A stretch of 64,000 bases of DNA from Pseudarthrobacter oxydans (lineage in GTDB: Bacteria > Actinomycetota > Actinomycetes > Actinomycetales > Micrococcaceae): the NCBI RefSeq assembly GCF_030812335.1, contig NZ_JAUSSN010000003.1, positions 124,001 to 188,000 of the forward strand. The letters run 5' to 3'. The translations under genes were made by a program, and so were the position numbers. This document shows, piece by piece, positions 34,992 through 56,193 of this stretch; the first letter of the stretch is position 1, and each line of letters opens with the position of its first letter. Under the pieces are notes generated by a model. It saw only the letters and a program-made list of their open reading frames with translations. It was not told the origin of the DNA and ran no database searches.

Positions 34992-35363
34992 ATGGTTACC
35001 CGACGTGAAGCAGCCCAGATCCTCGACATTCCGCTGGAAATGGCCCACCGTCACGGCATCCCGTCCCGGCTGAGCGACGCCGAACTCGGCGACCTCCTGG
35101 ACAACCCGCCGGCCTGGCTTGTCCAGTCCAAGGCCAACCGCACCGGCAAGCGCCCCATCTGGGTCCAGCTGACCTGCGCGGTCTGCGGGTTCTCCGAGGC
35201 GGCACGGCCGAAGAAGTGGTGGCCGGAGTTCACCTACGTGTGCTGCCCCCACCACGCGCCGTACGAGGTCCCCGGCGTCGCCGCCGGGCTGGTCCGCAGC
35301 GAATATGAGGGCGTGGGCAGCCGCTTCGTCGGCATCGTGGACGTTGCGGTGCCCGAGGCGTAA
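34992..35363 (+). CDS. Conserved small protein with Cys motif, function unknown
   Basis: A 123-residue protein I cannot name. The N-terminal half looks helical (RREAAQILDIPLEMAHRHGI, LGDLLDNPPAWL) and might be a DNA-binding-like helix pair. The C-terminal half has a CAVCGF pair and a later CCPHH cluster spaced as in a zinc ribbon. No signal peptide or membrane segment. The gene is separate from the fluC pair, and the codon use and acceptable start context support it being real. Confidence 0.72.
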   Translation: MVTRREAAQILDIPLEMAHRHGIPSRLSDAELGDLLDNPPAWLVQSKANRTGKRPIWVQLTCAVCGFSEAARPKKWWPEFTYVCCPHHAPYEVPGVAAGLVRSEYEGVGSRFVGIVDVAVPEA

Positions 35364-35412
35364 CTTAATATCACGGGGCCATCCCGGCCCCCTGCTGTTA
35401 GGGAGCGCCCAC

Positions 35413-35547
35413 ATGCCTGACAAAACGCCGCACCAGAGCACGGCCAAGAAACCGGTAAAAACCATCAAGGAAAAACGCGCCGAGAAAAAGTCCAAGAACG
35501 TCGCGGAAACGCACACGGACCCCGTCGCCCACATCAAGAAGCGCTGA
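35413..35547 (+). CDS. Small basic protein, 44 residues, function unknown
   Basis: A short frame with a GGGAG site before ATG and a perfect hairpin terminator just after. The peptide is lysine-rich and charged (KTIKEKRAEKKSKNV), without hydrophobic segments, consistent with an RNA- or DNA-associated peptide. The defined start site and terminator argue that it is genuine. No family recognised. Confidence 0.65.
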   Translation: MPDKTPHQSTAKKPVKTIKEKRAEKKSKNVAETHTDPVAHIKKR

Positions 35548-35580: not shown

Positions 35581-35616
35581 GCAAAAGACCGGAAGCTTAC
35601 GCTTCCGGTCTTTTGC
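35581..35616 (+). terminator. Intrinsic terminator after the 44-residue gene
   Basis: Perfect 16-bp arms GCAAAAGACCGGAAGC and GCTTCCGGTCTTTTGC with loop TTAC. The A-rich and T-rich ends make it usable from both strands, also for the convergent acetyltransferase gene. Confidence 0.9.
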
Positions 35617-35665
35617 AGCCGCGAGCGAGGGCCGGTCGCTAGCCTCAGGCCAGGAGGAAGGCTTC

Positions 35666-36607
35666 TTAGTGTTGCGCCGTACTCTTGGGCAACCGCGTCG
35701 AGTCTCTTGACGCGAGCGGTGCCGCCGCCAGGAACGATTCGATGTCCGGACCCAGTATCAGCGGAAGAAACTCATCGACCTGTTCGTCCGGCCAGTTCCA
35801 CCATTCGATTTCAAGAAGCTGGTCGATAATTTCCGGCTGGAACCTGTACTTGAGGACTCTCGCCGGGTTCCCACCCACAATGGCATAGGGTGCCACGTCT
35901 TTCGTGACAACCGCGTGGGCTCCGATCACGGCCCCGTGCCCAATCGTGACACCCGATGTGATGAAAGCAGAAGCTCCGATCCAAACGTCGCTGCCGATGG
36001 TCACAGCGCCGTGGGACCGGTGGTCCGCCAGTCCGGCCGCGGACGGCCACCATGTGGCGAGTGTCGAGAAAGGATATGACGAGACGGAATCAGTTCTGTG
36101 ATTCCCCAGCGCGATCTGCACTCCGGCCGCCACCGAGCAGAACTTTCCGAGCTCCAGGTGGGCTGAGGGACGCTCAAATATCACGGGCTTCCCGTACGTA
36201 TGATCTCCAATGTCCCAGCCGAACTTAGCAATGTCATCCGCCATCAGCATTCTCGTCAGCTGCGGCCAGCGTCCCCTGTCCTCCCAGGAAACGGAACTTG
36301 CCGTGAATATCACACTGGGATTCATCAGGGACGGTCCCTCGAAGGCCTCGCCTCCCCCTGATGCGGGCATGCGATCCAAGCGGCTGGTGACGCGACCGTC
36401 CTTGTGGATGAAGACGAGCGCGCCGTCCTCCACGCGCCAGCCGCTCTCGTACGGGTGGTTGTAACCGGACAAGCTGCCGTCGGGCAAGAACCGGAGGGCC
36501 GGACTCAGCACGCGATCGTTGGCTCGAAGCGACCAGATTCCGCGGGTAAGTTCCTTCTCTACGTCCCGACTGGCGGGCGCTGTCTCATCAACTTCAGAAA
36601 AAGGCAT
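35666..36607 (-). CDS. CatB-type hexapeptide-repeat acetyltransferase with N-terminal extension
   Basis: A 313-residue protein. The C-terminal two thirds form a left-handed beta-helix of the xenobiotic/streptogramin acetyltransferase (CatB/Vat) type: catalytic His in LGNHRTDSVSSYPF and hexapeptide turns IGSDVWIGASAFI, IGHGAVIGAHAVV, ending VGGNPARVLKYRF. About 110 N-terminal residues form an extra domain resembling a small beta-rich surface domain (FLPDGSLSGYNHPYESGW). In such a context it more likely O-acetylates a sugar than an antibiotic. It follows the GT61 gene on the same strand by 64 bp. Base composition is clearly lower in GC than the flanks. Confidence 0.82.
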   Translation of the reverse strand: MPFSEVDETAPASRDVEKELTRGIWSLRANDRVLSPALRFLPDGSLSGYNHPYESGWRVEDGALVFIHKDGRVTSRLDRMPASGGGEAFEGPSLMNPSVIFTASSVSWEDRGRWPQLTRMLMADDIAKFGWDIGDHTYGKPVIFERPSAHLELGKFCSVAAGVQIALGNHRTDSVSSYPFSTLATWWPSAAGLADHRSHGAVTIGSDVWIGASAFITSGVTIGHGAVIGAHAVVTKDVAPYAIVGGNPARVLKYRFQPEIIDQLLEIEWWNWPDEQVDEFLPLILGPDIESFLAAAPLASRDSTRLPKSTAQH

Positions 36608-36671
36608 TCTGGAAGCCTACAGCGGGACCGGTGGCGCACGTGATTTTGCCGGGCGGCACCTTCCTCATCGT

Positions 36672-38429
36672 TCAGAGGTCGTTGAGGATCTGCTCCAGGC
36701 GGGCGCCGTCCCGTTCAAAGTTGAACTCATAGTCCCAATTCGTGGCTCCAAGGGGGCGACCCGCCGAATCCACGTCCCGGTTGCCCTTGATGTCATCGCA
36801 CCAGAAGTTGTGTAACCGATGGTTCATGACCGTAGTGATGAAGTACTCGTTGGTCGCGACATAGGCAGTGTTCACGAACCCGATGATGTCCATGGGCTGC
36901 GCGGAGAACATCGCGCTGTACAGCCCGGAGCCGATGTAGCCGGCGGCGACCTTTGCGTTGGCGAACGCCGTGGCTTGCTCCTGGAGGGACAGGTCCTCCG
37001 GATAGATGACACGGAAGCCGTGCCGAACGAACAAGGTCTCAAGCTCCTCCATGTTCAAGCACTCACGCCACATTCCCGGCCGGCGTGAGACAAAGATTCG
37101 ATCACCAAAAGGGGACCGCCCACGGTCCAGGTTCTTCCCGAGCCGCTCGAAGGTTTCTCGGAGCATGGGATGGACATACTTCATGTTGTGGAACAACGGC
37201 ATGGGTGCAAACAGAGAGGCCAGCCGCACCGGACCCTTGAAGATGTGTATGTCTGACTCTCCGATACCGTAGGCCTCCAGTAGCGCAGATTGATAGGGCA
37301 GCAGATTGCCCTCCGCGGTCGGAGAACTGATGAGGATCTTCAGGTCAGGGTTCTTCGCCTTCACTTCGTCCCAGGCGTAGAGCCTCGGCACTGCCTCCGT
37401 CATGAAGTGGCCAAAGTGCCGGCTGTATTCCAAATCGAGGTAGTAGTACTGGCCAGCCAGGCTCACCGGTTCCGCGTCGGGTAGCGGGGACCAGGCGAAG
37501 TAGTGGTTGAGGGCGTTCAGGGCCGTGTTGCCCAGGCGGCCGATGAGACCCAGCCGGAACGTGTCGGGCAGGGCCAGAGAGTCCTTGAGGAGGACTTGAC
37601 GGGGCAGAGCGACGACATCATGGTATTCGCGGACATAGAGTTCCGGGACGTGGATGGGATTAGGGAACTTCTGAGCGGCCAAATCCGGATTGTTACCTGT
37701 GACGAGGGCCTCCGAGGTGACTACGGCCGCCTCCGTCCGTGACACAACACGACCCCAAGTTTCACCGTACCGGGCCTGCAAAATGCTGTTGGCTTCTCCG
37801 TGCCGGAGCTTGCATGCCTTGTGTCCCTTGCTGGAGATGGCAAGCAACTTCCCGTCAAACTCGATCCGGTGGACGGCCCGCGCCAGTTCCTTGTCGTCAG
37901 CACTCGCGCCAGCGGGTGCTTTGCCGCCGGAGCCCTTGATCACCAGCAAGCGGCTGACCAGCTGCCACAGATCCTCTTTGTCATCGTCCAGAAGTGACGG
38001 GATGTAGCTGGCGTGGAGGTCCTCAGCGATGTAGATCCCTGCATCGCCAACATAAGGAAAAAGTTGTCGAAAGATCTCGCGCTTTTGGCTTTTTCGATTG
38101 GGGCTGTCCTCGATGAGGACGTCGTACGGTCCTGAAGACGCCAGGGCCCTGTGCACACCGATCAGGTCACGGACGGGTTGCATGCGAACGTTCGGTCGGA
38201 GCCTTGCGTAGTCATCGACAGCCGCGAAGCTGATGGCAGTGACCGTTGCGTCAGGAAGGAACTCGGCGAAGGTGTTCGCGATGGCCACCGGGCGAGTCCC
38301 CAAGATGATCGCAAGGTGCCGAACGTCCTTGCCTTCGAGCAGTGACTGGTATCGGTCGAGGTAGTCGTGGCCCCCGGACGCTTGATCAATCTTGTTGCGC
38401 AGGCCAATGTCATTCAAGCTGATCGCCAA
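36672..38429 (-). CDS. Two-domain protein: methyltransferase-like domain fused to a GT61 glycosyltransferase domain
   Basis: From TTG 38429 the protein has about 585 residues. The first part contains a Rossmann-type, methyltransferase-like fold (HLAIILGTRPVAIANTFAEF, VLIEDSPNRKSQK, GIYIAEDLH). The C-terminal part is GT61/DUF563-like (YYYLDLEYSRHFGHFMTEAV, RIFVSRRPG, IYPEDLSLQEQATAFANAKV). The frame is open to 38648, but that start falls in the ssrA terminator; TTG 38429 has GGAG 8 nt upstream, and TTG 38489 is another option. It probably modifies a surface glycan together with the downstream acetyltransferase. Low GC suggests acquisition by transfer. Confidence 0.75.
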   Translation of the reverse strand: MAISLNDIGLRNKIDQASGGHDYLDRYQSLLEGKDVRHLAIILGTRPVAIANTFAEFLPDATVTAISFAAVDDYARLRPNVRMQPVRDLIGVHRALASSGPYDVLIEDSPNRKSQKREIFRQLFPYVGDAGIYIAEDLHASYIPSLLDDDKEDLWQLVSRLLVIKGSGGKAPAGASADDKELARAVHRIEFDGKLLAISSKGHKACKLRHGEANSILQARYGETWGRVVSRTEAAVVTSEALVTGNNPDLAAQKFPNPIHVPELYVREYHDVVALPRQVLLKDSLALPDTFRLGLIGRLGNTALNALNHYFAWSPLPDAEPVSLAGQYYYLDLEYSRHFGHFMTEAVPRLYAWDEVKAKNPDLKILISSPTAEGNLLPYQSALLEAYGIGESDIHIFKGPVRLASLFAPMPLFHNMKYVHPMLRETFERLGKNLDRGRSPFGDRIFVSRRPGMWRECLNMEELETLFVRHGFRVIYPEDLSLQEQATAFANAKVAAGYIGSGLYSAMFSAQPMDIIGFVNTAYVATNEYFITTVMNHRLHNFWCDDIKGNRDVDSAGRPLGATNWDYEFNFERDGARLEQILNDL

Positions 38430-38646
38430 GTTTGGAGCTCCGATGTTGTCGCTATGCGCCGATACTCCCGGCGTATTGGTCTCCGTCAATCCTAGGGCAG
38501 CAGCGGGAGTGTCCGGCCCTGACTTAAGGCGGCGGCCATCTTCCGGTACTTGGCGATGGTCCCTTGCTGGGGTCTGCGCATCGCTTCCATGCCTGTCCCC
38601 GATCGGTGCCGTTCTCGCCGACAAAACGAGCCTTTCGCCACCAGGC

Positions 38647-38689
38647 AAAAAGATAGGCCCCGGATCGCTGGGATCCAGGGCCTGTCTTG
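38647..38689 (-). terminator. Intrinsic terminator of ssrA
   Basis: Read leftward, a 17-bp stem (AAGACAGGCCCTGGATC pairing with GATCCGGGGCCTATCTT; one mismatch, one G-U) with loop CCAGC is followed by a run of five T. It starts one base after the tmRNA 3' end. Confidence 0.85.
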
Positions 38690-39057
38690 GGTGGAGATGG
38701 GGGGAATTGAACCCCCGTCCGATGTCGTGTTGTCAGGTCTTCTCCGGGCGCAGTTTGCGTCGGATTTTCTCGGCCCCAGCCATGCTGCAAACAGCTGGCT
38801 GATCCGGGCCCAGTCATCAAAGAGTCCCGTTCACCCCGATGACGGGGGTAAACAGCAGTGGCTATTTAAATGACGCCAGGATCCGGGGCAATAGCAACCT
38901 CGGGCTGACGGACTGTCTTACTGCTTAGGCAGCGAGAGCGAAGTCAGTGCGTTTTGATTCGGCACTTATTGGTTTGCAGACAGCGTTTACGAGATAATTC
39001 TGCATCCTCGGCCCGCTTCACCTGTCGCGACTAACATCGTCGAAACCGATCATCCCC
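38690..39057 (-). ncRNA. ssrA: tmRNA
   Basis: About 368 nt. The 5' end GGGGATGATCGGTTTCGACG is the conserved tmRNA start and pairs with the 3' acceptor strand CATCTCC; the tRNA-like T arm reads GGGGGTTCAATTCCCCCC. The tag reading frame (complement of 38925-38963) encodes AESKRTDFALAA and a stop, ending in the usual LAA-type degradation signal. It rescues stalled ribosomes with SmpB, encoded directly upstream. Confidence 0.96.
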
Positions 39058-39187: not shown

Positions 39188-39658
39188 CTAGCGCCGGTTC
39201 CGCTCGCGCATGACGCGCAGGGCCTCGCGCTTGTCCTGCTGTTCGCGCAGGGTCTGGCGCTTGTCGTATTCCTTCTTGCCGCGGGCGACGCCGATCTCCA
39301 CCTTGGCCCGCCCGTCCAGGAAATACAGCTGGAGGGGGACGATCGTGAAGCCTGATTCGCGGATCTTGTGCGAGATCTTGGTGAGTTCGTCGCGGTGCAG
39401 CAGCAGCTTCCGACGGCGGCGCGCGGCGTGGTTGGTCCAGCTCCCCTGGTGGTACTCGGGGATGTGGATGCCCTCCATCCACAGCTCGTCGTTGTAGAAG
39501 GTGCAGAAGCCGTCAACCATGGAGGCGTGTCCCTCACGGAGCGACTTCACCTCGGTGCCCATGAGCGCGATCCCGGCCTCGTACGTGTCGAGGATCGTAT
39601 AGTCGTGCCGGGCCTTACGGTTGGTGGCCACTACCTTACGGCCACTTTCTTTCGGCAC
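39188..39658 (-). CDS. smpB: SsrA-binding protein SmpB
   Basis: A 156-residue SmpB from GTG with the family hallmarks ATNRKARHDYTILDTYEAGI, LMGTEVKSLREG and the conserved basic C-terminal tail after KKEYDKRQTL. It binds the tRNA-like part of tmRNA and brings it to stalled ribosomes. The tmRNA gene follows 131 bp downstream on the same strand. Confidence 0.96.
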   Translation of the reverse strand: MPKESGRKVVATNRKARHDYTILDTYEAGIALMGTEVKSLREGHASMVDGFCTFYNDELWMEGIHIPEYHQGSWTNHAARRRRKLLLHRDELTKISHKIRESGFTIVPLQLYFLDGRAKVEIGVARGKKEYDKRQTLREQQDKREALRVMRERNRR

Positions 39659-49368: not shown

Positions 49369-52017
49369 ATGATGCGGACCTTACTTTCCCCCAACAGTCA
49401 CCTCGGCAGCCGGGTCGGGGCGGCGCTGCTGGCCGTCTCCCTGATCGCCGGTCCCGGCCTGGCCACGCCGGCAGCCGCCGTCGAGCCGTCACCGACGGCA
49501 TCCCCTGCCGCAACGGGTGACGCAGGTGCGCCTCCGGTGACCGCCGCCCCGACGGCGTCGGTTGCTCCGGCCCCGGCCACCGCGACGGCGGCCCCCACGG
49601 CTGCCCCCACGCCGGCGGCGGATAGTGCCCCGGCGACGGTTGACAAGTCCACGGAGGCCTACCGCAGCGCCATGGCGGAGGCCACCAAGACCGGCGGGGC
49701 GGAGATGGGGCAGGGAACGCGCGCTGCCGACGCATCGCTCGACGGGGACAAGGCTGCGGGCACCGAGGCCCTGGCCACCGAAGGCACCTGGATGCCCAGC
49801 TATGGGGTCCAGGGACTCGACGTCAGCAAGTACCAGGCCGGAATCAACTGGCAGACCGAGTGGAACATGGGCGCCCGCTTCGCCTACATCAAGGCCACCG
49901 AGGGGAACTACTACACCAGCACCACGTTCAGCGACCAGTACCTGGGCTCCAGGGCTGTTGGCATGATCCGCGGCGCCTACCATTTCGCCAACCCGGCAGC
50001 CTCCTCCGGCGCCGACCAGGCCCGGATCTTCGTCCAGAACGGCGGTGGCTGGAGCGCCGACGGGTACACCCTCCCTCCCGTGCTCGACTTTGAGGGAAAC
50101 CCCTACGCCGGCCAGACCATTGGCGGCTACTACCAGGGCAACACCTGCTACGACATGACCCCCGCCCAGCTGACGTCCTGGGCCCGCGACTTCGGCAACA
50201 CCATGCAGGCCCTGACCGGCCGGCTGCCGGTCATGTACACCACCACCACGTGGTGGAACTACTGCACCGGCGGGCCCTCCGGTTTCGGCGACTGGCCGCT
50301 GTGGATCGCCCGCTGGCCAAGCTCGCCCAGCGACAGCCCCGGCGCCCTGCCCTCCAGCTGGGCCAACTTCAGCTTCTGGCAGTACAGCGAGTCCGGCCCC
50401 TTTGCCAACGGCGGCGACTCAAACGTCTGGAACGGCTCGTACTCTCAGCTGTCGACGTTTGCAGCTGGGGGTGGGACCCCCGCCCAAGCGCCGCCAGTGG
50501 CACTTTCGAACGCCTACAAAGTGTCCTGGGCAGGAGATGCCGACAGTGACGGCAAACCGGACATGGTAGCCCACCATTCGGATGGGTCCCTGTGGTTTTC
50601 GGCAGGGACAGGAGCAGGCGGGTACCGTACGGCTCGGAACATCGGCAGTGGATGGAACATCTACGACAAGATCGTGGGCGTAGGCGACTCCAACCGGGAT
50701 GGCAAACCCGATGTGGTCGCCCGCCGAGCCGACGGCACCCTCTGGTTCTACGCCGGCGATGGCAAGGGCAGCTACCAGGGAGCCCGCCAGATTGGCACCG
50801 GCTGGCAGGCTTTCAACGAGCTGGCACGTGCCGGCGACTCCGACGGCGACGGCATCGCGGACGTTGTGGCACGAGATGCCGGAGGCGGCCTCTGGAGCTA
50901 CTCCGGCGACGGGAACGGCGGTTACAAGAACGGCCGGAAAATCGGATCGGGTTGGGACATCTTCAACTTGCTCGTGGGAACTGGCGACTTCAATTCCGAC
51001 GGCATCCCCGATGTTCTCGCCCGCCACACCAGTGGCAGCCTGTGGATATACCCGGGTGACGGAAGCGGCGGCTACCGAACCGGACGCCAGATCGGCACCG
51101 GGTGGTCCATCTACGATCAGGTCCTCGGCGCCGGAGACAACAACGGCGATGGCCGGGCCGATATCCTGGGGCGCCGCGCCGATGGCAGCCTCTGGTTCTA
51201 CGCGGGCGACGGCATGCGCAGCGACGGTTACACTGTCGCGCGTAAGGTCGGCACCGGCTGGAACATCTTCAGCCGTGTCACCGGCGTCGGAGACTCCGAC
51301 AGCGATGGCAAACCCGATCTGCTCACGCAACATACCGATGGCTCCCTCTGGTTCTACGCTGGAACAGGCACCGGAGGATACCGGACCGGGAGGGTTATCG
51401 GCAGCGGATGGAACATCTACGACAGGATCGAAGGCATCCCTGACGCCAACCGCGATGGTAAAGCCGATCTGCTCGCCCGCCGCCCGGACGGTAGCCTCTG
51501 GTTTTACGCCGGTGACGGCAAGGCAAACTACCAAGGCGCCCGCCAGGTCGGCACCGGTTGGCACGTGTTTTCACAGCTGATCAGCGCTGGCGATTCCAAT
51601 AGGGACGGCATCTCCGACGTTGTTGCGCGGGACTCCGCCGGCGGCCTCTGGAGCTACGCCGGTGACGGCACCGGCGGGTACCAGACCGGCCGACTAATCG
51701 GAACCGGCTGGGGCATTTATAACCAGGTGTTGAGCCCCGGCGATTTCGACGCCGACGGCATCCCCGACATTCTGGCGCGCCACACGAATGGCACCCTCTG
51801 GTTCTACCCGGGTGACGGCCGCGGCGGCTATGGCAGCGGACGCCAGATCGGTACTGGTTGGGGCATCTACAACCAGATTGTCGCGCCAGGCGACAACACC
51901 GGTGACGGATTGGCCGACGTCGTGGGGCGCCACACTGACGGCGGCCTATGGTTCTACGCCGGCGACGGCATGCGCACCGACGGGTACAACGGCGCTAGAG
52001 CCGTCGGGAGTTTCTGA
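49369..52017 (+). CDS. Secreted GH25 muramidase with ten propeller-like FG-GAP/tachylectin-type repeats
   Basis: An 882-residue exported protein: signal peptide (about 1-38), Ala/Pro/Thr linker (to about 140), GH25 lysozyme domain (about 145-355) and ten repeats (about 385-882). The GH25 catalytic acids are visible: Asp151 in GLDVSKYQ and Asp240/Glu242 in VLDFEG. Each repeat, about 50 residues, has a DxDxDG-type calcium loop, then DGSLWFYAGDG and IGTGWxxF. Repeats 1-5 and 6-10 form two copies of one 252-residue superunit. Likely binds and cuts peptidoglycan outside the cell. Repeats such as these usually bind glycans. Confidence 0.9.
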   Translation: MMRTLLSPNSHLGSRVGAALLAVSLIAGPGLATPAAAVEPSPTASPAATGDAGAPPVTAAPTASVAPAPATATAAPTAAPTPAADSAPATVDKSTEAYRSAMAEATKTGGAEMGQGTRAADASLDGDKAAGTEALATEGTWMPSYGVQGLDVSKYQAGINWQTEWNMGARFAYIKATEGNYYTSTTFSDQYLGSRAVGMIRGAYHFANPAASSGADQARIFVQNGGGWSADGYTLPPVLDFEGNPYAGQTIGGYYQGNTCYDMTPAQLTSWARDFGNTMQALTGRLPVMYTTTTWWNYCTGGPSGFGDWPLWIARWPSSPSDSPGALPSSWANFSFWQYSESGPFANGGDSNVWNGSYSQLSTFAAGGGTPAQAPPVALSNAYKVSWAGDADSDGKPDMVAHHSDGSLWFSAGTGAGGYRTARNIGSGWNIYDKIVGVGDSNRDGKPDVVARRADGTLWFYAGDGKGSYQGARQIGTGWQAFNELARAGDSDGDGIADVVARDAGGGLWSYSGDGNGGYKNGRKIGSGWDIFNLLVGTGDFNSDGIPDVLARHTSGSLWIYPGDGSGGYRTGRQIGTGWSIYDQVLGAGDNNGDGRADILGRRADGSLWFYAGDGMRSDGYTVARKVGTGWNIFSRVTGVGDSDSDGKPDLLTQHTDGSLWFYAGTGTGGYRTGRVIGSGWNIYDRIEGIPDANRDGKADLLARRPDGSLWFYAGDGKANYQGARQVGTGWHVFSQLISAGDSNRDGISDVVARDSAGGLWSYAGDGTGGYQTGRLIGTGWGIYNQVLSPGDFDADGIPDILARHTNGTLWFYPGDGRGGYGSGRQIGTGWGIYNQIVAPGDNTGDGLADVVGRHTDGGLWFYAGDGMRTDGYNGARAVGSF
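50533..52014 (+). repeat. Ten ~150-bp coding repeats arranged as two 756-bp superunits
   Basis: Protein repeats start near residues 388, 438, 489, 538, 588, 640, 690, 741, 790 and 840. Repeat 1 pairs with 6, 2 with 7, 3 with 8, 4 with 9 and 5 with 10, as shown by private features: YQGARQ in 2 and 7, GGGLWSY or AGGLWSY in 3 and 8, GDF with YPGDG in 4 and 9, and GDGMR with DGY in 5 and 10. The period between homologous repeats is 252 residues. Confidence 0.88.
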
Positions 52018-52286
52018 CCAGACGATATGAAGTGATGGGGGTGCAGGTCCTTGCCCGTCCGTGACCGGTCATGATCGCCGGGCGGTCCCGGCAGTGCCGG
52101 TTTTGGTGAAATCCGCGGCCGTCTGCGTGGTGGGCGGCGCTGCGGGGCCTGATCCCGGCGGTGAGGCCGGGGCCTTCTGTTTCACGGGATTCGTGGGTTG
52201 CCATTAAGGGTTCCCTTGGCCTGTCGGCTCGTCGGGGGTGCAATGGTAGTGCCATGGCAGACCGGGGACCGCGGACCGGGTCGCCG

Positions 52287-52721
52287 TCAGGCGGAGATTT
52301 CTTCGGAGTCGTCCGCCGCGCGGCGGGCGGGGCGGAAGATCCAGTGCTTGTACAGGAGGAAGTTCCAAGCGGTAATCATCGCGGTGGAAACGACCTTACC
52401 GATCTGATAGCCGAGCCCCAGCCATTCAGCACCATTGACAATCAAGTCAACCGCCAGAGTGTTGAAAGCTACGAGCAAGCAGTACTTGAACAAGCTGACA
52501 CTACGGCCGTTCTGTGCCCGGAACGTGAAGACCCGTTGCAGTATGAAGTTGAAAACCAGGCTGGTCAGGAATGCGATGGGAGTCGCGAGCCACAGTTCAA
52601 CACCGAAAACCTCGTGAAGCAGCATGAGCATGCCCAAATCTATGGCGAATGAAAGTCCGCCAACGATGATGAACCTGACAATCTCATTATTGAGCACAAC
52701 TTTTGAATGCCTTCTAAGCAC
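52287..52721 (-). CDS. GtrA-family membrane protein
   Basis: A 144-residue protein with four hydrophobic segments and the family motifs RFIIVGGLSFAIDLGMLM and FNFILQRVFTFR, ending in WNFLLYKHWIF. GtrA-like proteins are thought to carry undecaprenyl-linked sugars across the membrane for surface glycan decoration. It starts the polysaccharide region on the minus strand. Base composition is lower in GC than the flanks. Confidence 0.9.
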   Translation of the reverse strand: MLRRHSKVVLNNEIVRFIIVGGLSFAIDLGMLMLLHEVFGVELWLATPIAFLTSLVFNFILQRVFTFRAQNGRSVSLFKYCLLVAFNTLAVDLIVNGAEWLGLGYQIGKVVSTAMITAWNFLLYKHWIFRPARRAADDSEEISA

Positions 52722-53063
52722 TTATCCTCTTCGCTTCCAGTGGATTCCTGCGCTATCCACGCTAGTACCAACGCTGTCAAACCGGTGAAAATGAACCAAG
52801 CAATTGTCAGCTCTGAAGCCTAACGCCGATCCAGCGTAGAGGTGGCATGTCCTGTAGTACCCCGAGGGGCTGCGGCACCCGATGCCCCGCTGCCGCGCTG
52901 CCGGCGGGGCCATACTGCGGGAGGTCCGCACGTGAAACGCTCCACATTACGGTAGCATACTGAGGTCGCCGTGTCCGGCTGGGGCTAGCCGCCGCACGGC
53001 ACTATCGGCCGTGCTTTTAGATTCCAAAGCGATTCCACGACGAGCTTTTTAGGACCAATAGTT
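52722..53063. other. Divergent gene-free stretch between gtrA and the polytopic protein
   Basis: About 340 bp with no supportable gene. It must carry the promoters of both divergent genes. A 7-bp hairpin (GCCCCGC at 52884-52890, GCGGGGC at 52904-52910) is present, and the right half is AT-rich near 53020-53060. Nothing else recognised. Confidence 0.6.
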
Positions 53064-55025
53064 TTGACAACTACAGCGTCATTTTCTTCACACATTTCAG
53101 GCGCCAGGGAGAGATTTCTGACGTGGGTGTGTCTCAATGACAACAGACTCAAGCTTGCGGTTGTCGTCGCTTATCTGGTCGCAGTGGCCTGCGGGGCCAC
53201 AACCTCGTCCATAGGAATATCCACCCTCAGGGAGGACTCCAGCGATCCTTTCGGGCTTCAAATAGGTGAAGCGTCGAGAATTCGCGCGGATGAATATAAT
53301 GCGTTCTCCCCTATAGCACTGTCGATCATGGCTACTGGCGGCGCGCCGACGACCAGCGTACTTTCCGCCCCTGCGGACCTCGTCCACCGTTACTCCTCCG
53401 GAGGGTTCTTTGGATCGGTCGTGTTTTTCGATTCCACATTCCTCCAGACGGCGTCCTTCTTGCCCGACGCGATGCTGTTCGCCGCCCGGTGGTGGCTGCC
53501 GTCCCTGCTGCTTTTCCTTTTTCTCCCCAAGTGGTTCGTCCAGGTGGGTGCAGATCGCCGCTGGGGGTGGCTGGCGGCAATCTTGATCGCGCTTTCTCCG
53601 GCCGCCTCGTGGTGGACCATGATGCCGATCCAGTTGATCGCCTACACGGTAGCAGGGTGCAGTCTTCTCCTGTCCGCGTTCCAGAGGTTCATTCGCCGGG
53701 AGCGCCTCACTCCGGCACTCCAAAGCCTGGCGGCAGGAATTCTGATCGCCGGTATGCCCAGTTTCTACATTCCGTGGTCACTGGTGCTGGGCCTGCCTAT
53801 GCTCGTTGCTACCGTCGCGTGGATCTTCGGGTCGAAGGAAGAGTGGAAGCCGAAAATCCTGGCTTTGAGCAGCGCCGGCCTGGTCGCCATGGTATTCGCC
53901 GCAGGCATCCTCTGGGAGAACCGCGCCGGAATATCATCACTGCTGGAATCCGTTTATCCGGGCTCACGCAGGTCTGCCGGTGCGGCCCAGTCCTTCAGCA
54001 TGCTCTTTGGCGCTCCGGCGCTGGGTGCGCTGCAGGAAATGACTCCCATCGGAAGCAACGAAAGTGAACTGTCAACCGCCTTCACCATCACGTTCGTTTG
54101 GGCAGCCTTCCTACTTGTTGGCTTGAAATCGTTTGGGCCGCTGCGGCAGAACGTCGTCATCTTGGTGTTGATGGGATTCGGTCTAATCTGGATCGCCTGG
54201 TGCACCATCAACCTCGGGGACAAAAGCGCGGCAATGCCGTTGTTGAACTTCGTGCAGCCCGCGCGCGCCGCCCAAGTCTGCGGAATCCTCGGAACCATCT
54301 TGGTCTGCCTGTTGCTGTCCCGCTTACCCGCCAGGTCAGGCTGGCGGCTGCCGACAGTCTCGGCTGTTGTCTGCGGCATGATCACAGCCTTCGCGGCATC
54401 CGCCCTTCAACAGACGCATCTTCCCGTCATCTCGCATAAGTTCATTGCACTCGTGGCCGTCGCCGTGGCCGTTTCGGTCTTCTGCGTGACACGATTTCCG
54501 CACAGGATCTGGCCCATGGTCCTGATCACCGTGTTGGCGGCGGTACCAGTCCTCAACTCCAACCCGCTACTCTTCGGCTTGGGCGACCTGAGGGGGTCCG
54601 CAACAGCTGACTACCTGAACGATGAGGGAAAGACCACTCGGTCGGCCGACGGCGTGTGGGCGTCGGACTCGCCCTCCTTCGACACCGCCATGATTGCCAA
54701 CGGTGTCCCGTCACTTAGCGGGCTGCAGCGGTCGGGCCCTGACAAGTCGCAGTGGGCCAAATTGGATCCGGATCAGAGCCACTCCCAGGAGTGGAACCGC
54801 GGCGGCGGATTCGTGTACTTCCAATGGTTGGCCGGACAGCCCCTCATCTTCGGCAATAATGGCTCGGACTCAGTCATGGTCGGAGTGGACCCGTGTGACC
54901 TGAAGCGGCGCATCCCAAATCTTCGGGGAATCGCTTCCACTCATCCGCTGGACGTCCCCTGTCTGGTGCCAGATCGTACCTTGAGATGGTCCGATCAGGA
55001 CATGTTCATTTACAAGTTCTCCTAG
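53064..55025 (+). CDS. Large polytopic membrane protein, GT-C-like, function unknown
   Basis: A 653-residue protein from TTG with an AGGA site 10 nt upstream. It has about 12 hydrophobic segments from residue 28 to 500 and a C-terminal extracytoplasmic domain of about 130 residues. The first outside loop has EASRIRADEYNAFSPIALS, where an Arg-Ala-Asp-Glu group sits as in GT-C glycosyltransferases of the DUF7657/YfhO-like group. A polyprenyl-linked sugar transferase is the best guess. The gene lies between gtrA and a lipoprotein gene. Confidence 0.72.
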   Translation: MTTTASFSSHISGARERFLTWVCLNDNRLKLAVVVAYLVAVACGATTSSIGISTLREDSSDPFGLQIGEASRIRADEYNAFSPIALSIMATGGAPTTSVLSAPADLVHRYSSGGFFGSVVFFDSTFLQTASFLPDAMLFAARWWLPSLLLFLFLPKWFVQVGADRRWGWLAAILIALSPAASWWTMMPIQLIAYTVAGCSLLLSAFQRFIRRERLTPALQSLAAGILIAGMPSFYIPWSLVLGLPMLVATVAWIFGSKEEWKPKILALSSAGLVAMVFAAGILWENRAGISSLLESVYPGSRRSAGAAQSFSMLFGAPALGALQEMTPIGSNESELSTAFTITFVWAAFLLVGLKSFGPLRQNVVILVLMGFGLIWIAWCTINLGDKSAAMPLLNFVQPARAAQVCGILGTILVCLLLSRLPARSGWRLPTVSAVVCGMITAFAASALQQTHLPVISHKFIALVAVAVAVSVFCVTRFPHRIWPMVLITVLAAVPVLNSNPLLFGLGDLRGSATADYLNDEGKTTRSADGVWASDSPSFDTAMIANGVPSLSGLQRSGPDKSQWAKLDPDQSHSQEWNRGGGFVYFQWLAGQPLIFGNNGSDSVMVGVDPCDLKRRIPNLRGIASTHPLDVPCLVPDRTLRWSDQDMFIYKFS

Positions 55026-55131
55026 CCGTTCGTGCCGGGAGCGGGCCCCGGATTGCCCGCCGCAAGCACGTGAGCGGCTAGGGTTGTAGGCAGGTACGAC
55101 AAGGCACGCACCAGATCGGAAAGGGAAGTCG

Positions 55132-56193
55132 TTGCGCACACGGTCCATAGGCGGCGCTCTCGCCTGCATTCTGCTCGCTGGGATAGGAGCGGCTGGTTGC
55201 TCGAGCAAGACGTCCGTCACCGATGTCAGAGGTTCTCTGACAGCGATCGGTACACCGGTGCAGCAAGACCCCATCGGAGCATGGAGCAGTGCCTGGACGA
55301 AGGTGCACAACGCCACTTCCGTTAACTACTCTCCCGATGGTTCCGAGGTCGGGATTTCTGCCCTGTCGACGGGGCAGGCTTACTTCGCGGCGCTCGACAC
55401 GCCCCTAACGCAGGCGCAGCAAGACCAGACGAAGCAAGTGTGTGGGCCGACCGGGGCGTTCTCCATCCCGGTTTCGATCACCTCCCTCGGCGTGGCATTC
55501 AACATGCCCAGTGTCCAGAGTCTCAAACTTAGCCCTGCCGTCCTGGCTGGCATCTTTTCGGGAGAAATCACCCGCTGGGACGCAGCCGAGATTATCGAGT
55601 TGAATCCCGGCACAACTCTTCCGTCGTCGGAGATCGTCCCGGTCACGGCAGCGCAGCGAAGTGCCGAGACCACAGCGGCGACCAGGTATCTCAGCAGCGT
55701 CCCTGAATGGACAGCCGGCGTCACCGATGTCTGGCCGAAACCGAAGAACGGAATCGAAGAAAAGAAACTCTCCGACATCGGAACCAAGGTCGACCAGACA
55801 GCCGGTGCCATAGCGTTCATGACCACCGGCGCGAACGGAGGCCGCTTCGACACTGCGCTTATGTCATTTGGGGAGGGTTTCGTGCGCATGTCCAAGGACT
55901 CCACCGCTGTCGCAGCCAAGGAGGGCGCCACGCGGAAGATCCCCACTGGTGTCGAGTTCACCCTCCCGGAAAAAAGCGCCGAAGGCTACGCCCTTGGCGT
56001 CGTCGGGTACCAGGCCTTCTGCCCCAGGTACAAGAATGGCCCATTGACCACCCTCGTGAAGTCTTGGGGGAAGTTCGTTCTCAGTCCGGACGGCCAGGTC
56101 GCCTCGACTTATTTCGCGAACGTCGTTTCGCCCAGTGAGGAAGCTCTGAGGGCTTCTAACACCATGATTGAAGCTATACGGGAGGAGGCATGA
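55132..56193 (+). CDS. PstS-like phosphate-type substrate-binding lipoprotein
   Basis: A 353-residue protein from TTG after AAGGGAAG. The lipobox is GIGAAGC, so it is a lipoprotein. The rest has the PBP-like layout of PstS: SGEITRWDAAEI, IPVSITSLGVAFN, and GAIAFMTTGANGG. The phosphate-binding pattern T-G-S-x-x-G is not evident at the start (NYSPDGSEVGISAL). No pstCAB genes adjoin it; it overlaps a DUF2142 membrane protein gene by 4 bp. It may bind phosphate or another anion for a surface-assembly role. Confidence 0.78.
   Translation: MRTRSIGGALACILLAGIGAAGCSSKTSVTDVRGSLTAIGTPVQQDPIGAWSSAWTKVHNATSVNYSPDGSEVGISALSTGQAYFAALDTPLTQAQQDQTKQVCGPTGAFSIPVSITSLGVAFNMPSVQSLKLSPAVLAGIFSGEITRWDAAEIIELNPGTTLPSSEIVPVTAAQRSAETTAATRYLSSVPEWTAGVTDVWPKPKNGIEEKKLSDIGTKVDQTAGAIAFMTTGANGGRFDTALMSFGEGFVRMSKDSTAVAAKEGATRKIPTGVEFTLPEKSAEGYALGVVGYQAFCPRYKNGPLTTLVKSWGKFVLSPDGQVASTYFANVVSPSEEALRASNTMIEAIREEA

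What the first reader, a model, noticed from the sequence alone, without database searches (positions are those of the whole stretch)
35666..38429. Lower-GC pair beside ssrA: methyltransferase-like/GT61 fusion plus CatB-type acetyltransferase
Two same-strand genes with visibly lower GC than both flanks lie between the ssrA terminator and a converging terminator at 35581. One protein joins a Rossmann methyltransferase-like part to a GT61 part; the other adds a novel N-terminal domain to a hexapeptide acetyltransferase. tmRNA genes are frequent integration points. This may be a transferred glycan-decoration module in which one protein both recognises or methylates and glycosylates.
Basis: partly seen in the sequence, partly recalled or inferred. 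Interest (0 to 1): 0.62.

Follow-up and report, generated by a model that had tools for sequence, protein, structure and literature searches.

The report
Decayed prophage carrying sugar-decorating genes
Two genes that probably add a sugar and an acetyl group to a bacterium's cell-wall polymer sit in the remains of a virus-like element that had inserted itself at the end of the tmRNA gene, an example of how such elements can repaint their host's surface.

Summary
The pair (GT61 fusion 36672-38432, O-acetyltransferase 35666-36607, minus strand) lies in a 3,074-bp insert (35616-38689) starting at the ssrA 3' end, absent from all 39 relatives' 9-kb ssrA flanks examined. Its first 160 bp match six ssrA-adjacent elements of the genus, four with an integrase there, including a ~50-kb prophage and ~5-kb islands. 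They keep an element-type ssrA terminator and an integrase fossil of about 17 codons; the far att site is gone. So the pair is probably cargo of a decayed ssrA prophage or island. A structure model confirms both halves: residues 14-203 resemble the sugar O-methyltransferase MycE, residues 221-586 the GT61 enzyme POMGNT2. But the catalytic His is Asn, and no SAM-binding loop is recognisable in 11 aligned relatives, so I read the N-part as a pseudo-methyltransferase. In 7 of 10 other cellular genomes the relative sits within 5 kb of a TagF-type polymerase. Best mechanism (inferred): glycosylation and O-acetylation of a polyol-phosphate wall polymer, resembling phage-borne seroconversion.

The parts
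38690..39057 (-). ssrA (tmRNA); bases 348-367 of 368 are the attachment core of the element family
   Evidence: ARAGORN; core position; the core recurs at the distal side of ssrA elements in G087, G019, G041, G009, G120, G024 and on another contig in G080
38650..38688 (-). ssrA terminator brought by the element
   Evidence: fold -27.1 kcal/mol, z -4.3; similar sequence in the same place in G087, G019, G041, G080, G053, G101; only the window copy was folded
38581..38688 (-). left end (attL-proximal leader) of the ssrA element
   Evidence: 81% identical over 110 bp to the G087 prophage left end; also G053, G080, G019, G101, G041
38530..38580 (-). integrase fossil, about 17 codons (RRPQQGTIAKYRKMAAA), joined to the leader by a deletion of about 0.44 kb relative to G087
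   Evidence: 88% over 51 bp to positions 555-605 of the G087 element, 84% to G080; also G019 and G041; these positions lie inside open frames that hold PF00589
36672..38432 (-). MT-like/GT61 fusion, 586 aa; residues 14-203 (about 37824-38393) MycE-like fold, residues 221-586 (36675-37772) GT61 fold
   Evidence: PF04577 76.6 bits, cut-off 27; model pLDDT 81.9, pTM 0.83; POMGNT2 Z 17.8, MycE Z 14.8
35666..36607 (-). hexapeptide (xenobiotic-acetyltransferase type) O-acetyltransferase, 313 aa, with an N-terminal extension of about 125 residues
   Evidence: PF00132; Vat/CatB-like over residues 135-292, His170 in the NHR motif
35581..35616 (.). chromosomal bidirectional terminator; right boundary of the insert (no attR left)
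   Evidence: fold -30.6 kcal/mol; lies directly 3' of ssrA in relatives such as G129
34992..35547 (+). chromosomal right flank: DUF5997-like gene and an 80-aa ORF
   Evidence: near ssrA in relatives; PF19460 match below its cut-off
39188..39658 (-). chromosomal left flank: smpB (name recalled; not scanned against a family library)
   Evidence: 156-aa ORF, found in all 39 ssrA flanks

Best explanation
The 3.07-kb insert is what is left of a temperate phage or small integrative element that entered at the 3' end of ssrA with a tyrosine integrase. Shown: exact left junction, element-type terminator and leader, an integrase fossil, loss of most of the integrase and of attR, and absence from the relatives examined. 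Inferred: its two cargo genes are a lysogenic-conversion module. The GT61 fusion would transfer a sugar to a polyol-phosphate (teichoic-acid-type) wall polymer made by the host's TagF-like enzymes, encoded on another contig. Its N-terminal domain keeps a sugar-O-methyltransferase fold but would serve acceptor or polymer recognition rather than methylation. The acetyltransferase would O-acetylate the same polymer. The outcome would be an altered surface that other phages bind less well.
For: Insert boundaries against G129: ssrA ends at 38690 and homology resumes at 35615; 0 of 39 ssrA flanks carry either gene. Left-end match to six ssrA-adjacent elements, E down to 4e-24; 2 of 186 random window pieces gave a hit, each of 21 bp. 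Intact elements show ssrA core - element - core - empty-site flank. G087's element has integrase, portal, terminase, head and tail-spike genes. Left end in 13 of 206 genus genomes, own included; near a detected tmRNA in 8 of the other 12. Relatives of the fusion lie within 5 kb of a TagF-type (PF04464-like) gene in 7 of 10 other cellular genomes and directly after a gene annotated CDP-glycerol glycerophosphotransferase family in a C. freundii plasmid capsule locus. One lies beside a tail spike in an IMG/VR contig. The host has two PF04464 proteins in a cluster syntenic with G086's; in G086 the corresponding slot holds two fusions. Fold matches.
Against: No intact element of this family carrying these two genes was seen: tblastn of both proteins against 14 fetched element pieces found nothing. 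The pair could therefore have entered the scar later. A phage-collection scaffold with a relative of the fusion also holds a TagF-like gene, so it may be cellular DNA; that leaves one viral contig as phage evidence. The acetyltransferase has no observed link to TagF loci; its Pseudoroseomonas relative sits among transport and metabolic genes. Three of ten other genomes, an Aeromicrobium plasmid (16.6 kb seen) and the viral contig (6.5 kb seen) show no TagF-type gene near the relative. The sugar donor, acceptor and any surface phenotype are untested.
Confidence: 0.6

Rival explanations
1. The ssrA element decayed first, and the two genes reached the scar later by another route, for example recombination with a glycopolymer cluster such as that of G086; they are then not phage cargo.
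For: Relatives of the fusion in cellular genomes mostly sit in glycopolymer clusters, in G086 beside transposase-like ORFs. None of the 14 fetched element pieces carries the genes. The right end is missing, so co-arrival cannot be read from the right junction.
Against: The genes follow the integrase fossil directly, on its strand, and by eye no IS remnant lies in the 97 bp between them. A relative occurs in a viral contig beside a tail spike.
Confidence: 0.27
2. The fusion is a true bifunctional enzyme that O-methylates the sugar before or after transferring it.
For: MycE-like fold. In the window protein and both G086 copies the positions of the MycE metal Asp residues are kept (D109, D138). 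phrog_21658 methyltransferase matches weakly (E 1.6e-5).
Against: No SAM loop recognisable in 11 aligned relatives and the His278 position is Asn in the window protein; of the other eight relatives none keeps D109 and two keep D138, and only A. oris aligns a His at the His278 position.
Confidence: 0.1
3. The acetyltransferase is a CatB or Vat drug-modifying enzyme and the island is a resistance element.
For: Closest solved structures are streptogramin A and chloramphenicol acetyltransferases; the catalytic-type His is kept.
Against: Scores are under half of the curated cut-offs (146.8 of 300 for Vat, 138.5 of 350 for CatB). There is an N-terminal extension and a glycosyltransferase partner.
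Confidence: 0.05

Closest known systems
GT61 (POMGNT2 and bacterial capsule GT61)
   Same: Pfam Glyco_transf_61 well above cut-off; model matches POMGNT2 at Z 17.8 over 289 residues. A GT61 gene is listed in one Neisseria weaveri capsule locus (passages of PMC6202450)
   Different: Fused to a methyltransferase-like domain; often near TagF-type polymerases; POMGNT2 acts on O-mannosyl peptides (titles)
MycE/SpnK sugar O-methyltransferases
   Same: Fold over residues 14-203 (Z 14.8, 183 aligned, rmsd 4.0); D109 and D138 at the metal-Asp positions
   Different: Catalytic His is Asn; no recognisable SAM loop; fused to a GT
Phage seroconversion genes (P22 gtr, D3 oac) and prophage tarP of S. aureus
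   Same: Mobile element carrying a glycosyltransferase and/or an acetyltransferase for a surface polymer (passages of PMC11436027; abstract start of PMC9650247 in a listing)
   Different: Other enzyme families (recalled); Gram-positive wall polymer and phenotype inferred only; element decayed
Integrative islands at tmRNA genes (Islander database)
   Same: Insertion at the ssrA 3' end; in intact relatives an integrase next to ssrA and the core repeated at the far end (abstract start of PMC4383910 in a listing)
   Different: In this genome integrase and attR are lost

Membership tests
Glycosyltransferase family 61 | Pfam PF04577 above curated cut-off | tested here: met
   76.6 bits against 27
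Glycosyltransferase family 61 | GT61 fold | tested here: met
   POMGNT2 Z 17.8, rmsd 5.3, 289 aligned, residues 221-586
Glycosyltransferase family 61 | Glycosyl transfer activity | not testable with these tools
   needs protein and substrates
MycE-type SAM-dependent O-methyltransferase | MycE-like fold | tested here: met
   Z 14.8, rmsd 4.0, 183 aligned; modelled for the window protein only
MycE-type SAM-dependent O-methyltransferase | Metal Asp275 and Asp304 | tested here: met
   D109 and D138 in the window protein by the alignment; roles from passages of PMC9275233; I matched the numbering by the spacing D-x-x-H and +29. In the eight relatives outside this genus D109 is kept in none, D138 in two
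MycE-type SAM-dependent O-methyltransferase | Active-site His278 | tested here: not met
   Asn112 aligned
MycE-type SAM-dependent O-methyltransferase | Glycine-rich SAM loop and acidic residue after strand 2 (motif recalled) | tested here: not met
   not recognisable by eye in 11 of 11 aligned relatives; no ligand test
CatB / Vat xenobiotic acetyltransferases | NCBIfam equivalog score | tested here: not met
   146.8 of 300 (Vat), 138.5 of 350 (CatB)
CatB / Vat xenobiotic acetyltransferases | Hexapeptide repeat and catalytic-type His (His role recalled) | tested here: met
   PF00132 35.5 bits, cut-off 27; His170 aligns with the NHR His of a streptogramin A acetyltransferase
ssrA-targeting integrative element or prophage | Junction at the ssrA 3' end with element left-end sequence | tested here: met
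ssrA-targeting integrative element or prophage | Integrase gene | tested here: not met
   only a 51-bp fossil remains; the five PF00589 matches of the genome lie on other contigs
ssrA-targeting integrative element or prophage | attR repeat | tested here: not met
   with up to 3 mismatches: one core copy in ssrA itself and one 3-mismatch site on another contig
Phage seroconversion (lysogenic conversion) module | Changes the surface polymer and phage adsorption | not testable with these tools
   needs mutants and phage

The most novel reading that the evidence does not exclude
An unnamed enzyme family, a pseudo-methyltransferase fused to GT61, partners TagF-type polyol-phosphate polymerases from actinobacteria to an enterobacterial plasmid capsule. 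Mobile elements carry it as a surface-conversion gene: a distant analogue of prophage TarP, in which a dead sugar-methyltransferase fold has become the polymer-recognition part.
Probability: 0.35. Interest if true: 0.62.

Novelty: new variant of a known kind. Interest (0 to 1): 0.48.

Why it matters
If true, it extends prophage-driven surface conversion, best known for O-antigens and for S. aureus teichoic acid, to another group of actinobacteria. It would also give a role to a fusion family whose partner fold has lost its chemistry. Practically, linkage to TagF-type genes predicts the acceptor polymer, and the ssrA left-end sequence gives a search handle for further cargo.

Tried and rejected
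Rejected: attR remnant in the window. A k-mer and short-BLAST scan with the ssrA 3' end found no second copy, and the pattern search in the whole genome, up to 3 mismatches, found only ssrA and one 3-mismatch site.

Rejected: the pair is an ancestral ssrA neighbour. 0 of 39 flanks have it; these genomes were picked mainly for high ssrA identity, not at random. In the genus, 5 of 150 genomes have a GT61 match: the own genome; G086, full length and 192 kb from its ssrA; and three that match in the GT61 half only.

Led nowhere: the acetyltransferase alone gave a useless model (mean pLDDT 35.5), so the fold of its extension is unknown. A viral-contig scan with the acetyltransferase found no relative. 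PADLOC was not searched. Two ORFs in the slot of the host's own cluster had no Pfam match at 0.001; one had a sub-threshold Asp2 hit.

Against my reading: none of 14 fetched element pieces carries the two proteins. Two of the six left-end matches, G053 and G101, showed no integrase beside ssrA (G101; G053 was not scanned for it). Four of the 12 other genomes with the left end have it with no tmRNA detected in the fetched 3 kb. The fusion is rare: 0 of 395 other genomes in a phylum-wide draw and 6 of 296 others in the order at E 1e-30; only the best few candidates per genome were scored. PF04464 was absent from two of ten fusion genomes, own included. An Enterobacter plasmid locus of similar layout has a shorter GT61 without the N-part. 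For the more distant relatives the N-part is only loosely alike: profile or BLAST matches often begin at residues 81-181, so that they share the MycE-like fold is an inference from length and alignment.

The linkage count became 7 of 10 after adding A. oris WE8B-23 (L037).

Dropped before counts: one of 39 flanks (L114) was not oriented, but tblastn covers both strands. Nine of 39 flanks showed no downstream chromosomal genes within 9 kb, so their right side could not be compared.

Papers: the listings of searches show no paper on a methyltransferase-GT61 fusion; of these only PMC6202450 was opened (passages). No other search was made for it.

Full report
What is there. Two minus-strand genes lie between ssrA (38690-39057) and a strong terminator at 35581-35616. 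The first is a 586-aa GT61 protein with an N-terminal extension; I place its start at TTG 38432 because GGAG lies 8 nt upstream and its 70% relative in G086 starts the same way. The second is a 313-aa hexapeptide acetyltransferase that starts 64 bp after the first stop. The insert has 60.3% GC against 66.8% for the rest of the window; 15 of 549 windows of the same size are as low, all starting at 51.4-53.0 kb. GC3 is 0.756 and 0.713 against 0.841-0.894 for six flanking genes. So the composition is unusual but not unique in the window.

It is an insertion. I fetched 39 ssrA flanks, 9 kb on the 3' side, from the same genus, picked mainly for high ssrA identity. None holds either gene. Thirty of the 39 show the chromosomal genes that follow in the window, 16 of them with the DUF5997-like gene within 0.75 kb of ssrA. 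Against one of the closest, G129 (94.2% and 92.6% identity on the two sides), homology stops at ssrA base 38690 and resumes at 35615. The 3,074-bp insert replaces some 43 bp that lie between ssrA and the terminator in G129. In the genus only G086 of the 149 other genomes searched has a full-length fusion, and it is 192 kb from ssrA there.

It is the wreck of an ssrA element. In 8 of 24 genus genomes scanned, partly chosen for odd ssrA flanks, a tyrosine integrase lies next to ssrA. The first 160 bp of the insert match what follows ssrA in six genomes: G087 81% over 110 bp and then 88% over 51 bp, also G080, G019 and G041, these four with an integrase beside ssrA, and G053 and G101, where none was seen. 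Of 186 random 160-bp pieces of the window, 2 gave a same-strand hit to these six left ends, each of 21 bp at E 5e-4, against 4e-24 for the insert. The matched piece includes an element-type ssrA terminator and about 17 codons from inside the integrase frame, brought next to the leader by a deletion of about 0.44 kb relative to G087. In intact elements a 20-base core from the ssrA 3' end (bases 348-367) recurs at the far end; in G087 and G019 it is followed by sequence like that after ssrA in empty sites. G019 and G041 are about 5.1 kb long. G087 is about 50 kb and has integrase, portal, terminase, major head and tail-spike genes, so it is a prophage. G087 also carries a short second copy of the left end between two cores. 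The left end occurs in 13 of 206 genus genomes, own included, and lies near a detected tmRNA in 8 of the other 12. In G000 the far core is gone.

What the fusion is. Pfam gives GT61 at 76.6 bits. An AlphaFold2 model from 15 sequences has mean pLDDT 81.9 and pTM 0.83. Residues 221-586 match POMGNT2, a GT61 enzyme (Z 17.8, rmsd 5.3, 289 aligned). Residues 14-203 match the sugar O-methyltransferases MycE and SpnK (Z 14.8 and 14.7; MycE rmsd 4.0 over 183). phmmer finds MycE too (E 6e-5) and its alignment pairs D109, N112 and D138 with the residues I take, by their spacing, as MycE Asp275, His278 and Asp304; the roles of these come from passages of PMC9275233. Both Asp residues are kept in the window protein and the two G086 copies; in the other eight aligned relatives D109 is kept in none and D138 in two. 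By eye none of the 11 shows a glycine-rich SAM loop or an acidic residue after strand 2 (motif recalled). I therefore read the N-part as a pseudo-methyltransferase. The fold of the N-part was modelled for the window protein only.

What the acetyltransferase is. Residues 135-292 resemble Vat and CatB enzymes and keep the His of the NHR motif, but scores are under half of the curated cut-offs. The extension is shared with at least two alphaproteobacterial proteins and its fold is unknown.

Function. In 7 of 10 other cellular genomes the relative lies within 5 kb of a TagF-type gene: G086, G607, G662, G565, Nocardioides insulae and two A. oris strains. As a control, 1 of 8 genus genomes without a full fusion has PF04464 at all. 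A full-length relative (29%) also directly follows a gene annotated CDP-glycerol glycerophosphotransferase family in a Citrobacter freundii plasmid capsule locus. The host's own PF04464 pair is on contig C6 in a cluster largely syntenic with G086's: four proteins are 78-82% identical, the TPR-TagF-GT4 protein only 44%. In G086 the corresponding slot holds two fusions; in G000 it holds other genes, including a hexapeptide acetyltransferase. A relative also occurs in a viral contig beside a tail spike. A phage-collection scaffold with another relative holds a TagF-like gene and may be cellular DNA. I infer that the pair glycosylates and O-acetylates a polyol-phosphate wall polymer as a lysogenic-conversion module. 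Precedents are P22 gtr and D3 oac (passages of PMC11436027) and prophage tarP (abstract start of PMC9650247 in a listing).

What is not shown. Co-arrival of genes and element: no intact element with the pair was seen. Also the donor sugar, the acceptor, and any phenotype. An Aeromicrobium plasmid, the viral contig and three genomes show no TagF-type gene near the relative.

Noticed in passing
window 51400-56000: A second, lower-GC stretch (down to 0.590 over 3 kb) that overlaps the end of a large FG-GAP-like repeat protein gene (49369-52017) and reaches a membrane-protein ORF (53064-55025); names from reading only.
   Followed up: no
L148:14624-17691 (G041): A 5.1-kb ssrA element with integrase carries a DUF6270 gene and a weak polysaccharide-deacetylase match; by eye a similar ORF lies in the A. 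oris fusion cluster (L038:14170-15096). Small ssrA elements may often carry surface-glycan genes.
   Followed up: partly
L147:693-1625 (G101): An ssrA remnant of about 1.2 kb with the same left end holds a DUF6492 gene.
   Followed up: partly
L151:10861-11056 (G087): A solo left end between two att cores 176 bp apart beside the prophage, as if a second element had been deleted down to its end.
   Followed up: partly
L160, L162, L169, L170 (G835, G853, G107, G842): Left-end matches of the element with no tmRNA detected in the fetched 3 kb; perhaps another site or an assembly break.
   Followed up: no
L118:5500-10000 (G086): ORFs that by eye look like broken transposase remnants around a fusion gene in the glycopolymer cluster.
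   Followed up: no
L149:2809-7691 (MT836422.1): A record in the phage collection, a human faecal scaffold, holds a TagF-like gene and a relative of the fusion; it may be bacterial DNA filed as phage.
   Followed up: partly
L167 (G054): tmRNA tag peptide reads ANSKRTDFALAA instead of the AESKRTDFALAA of the other eight tmRNAs detected.
   Followed up: no
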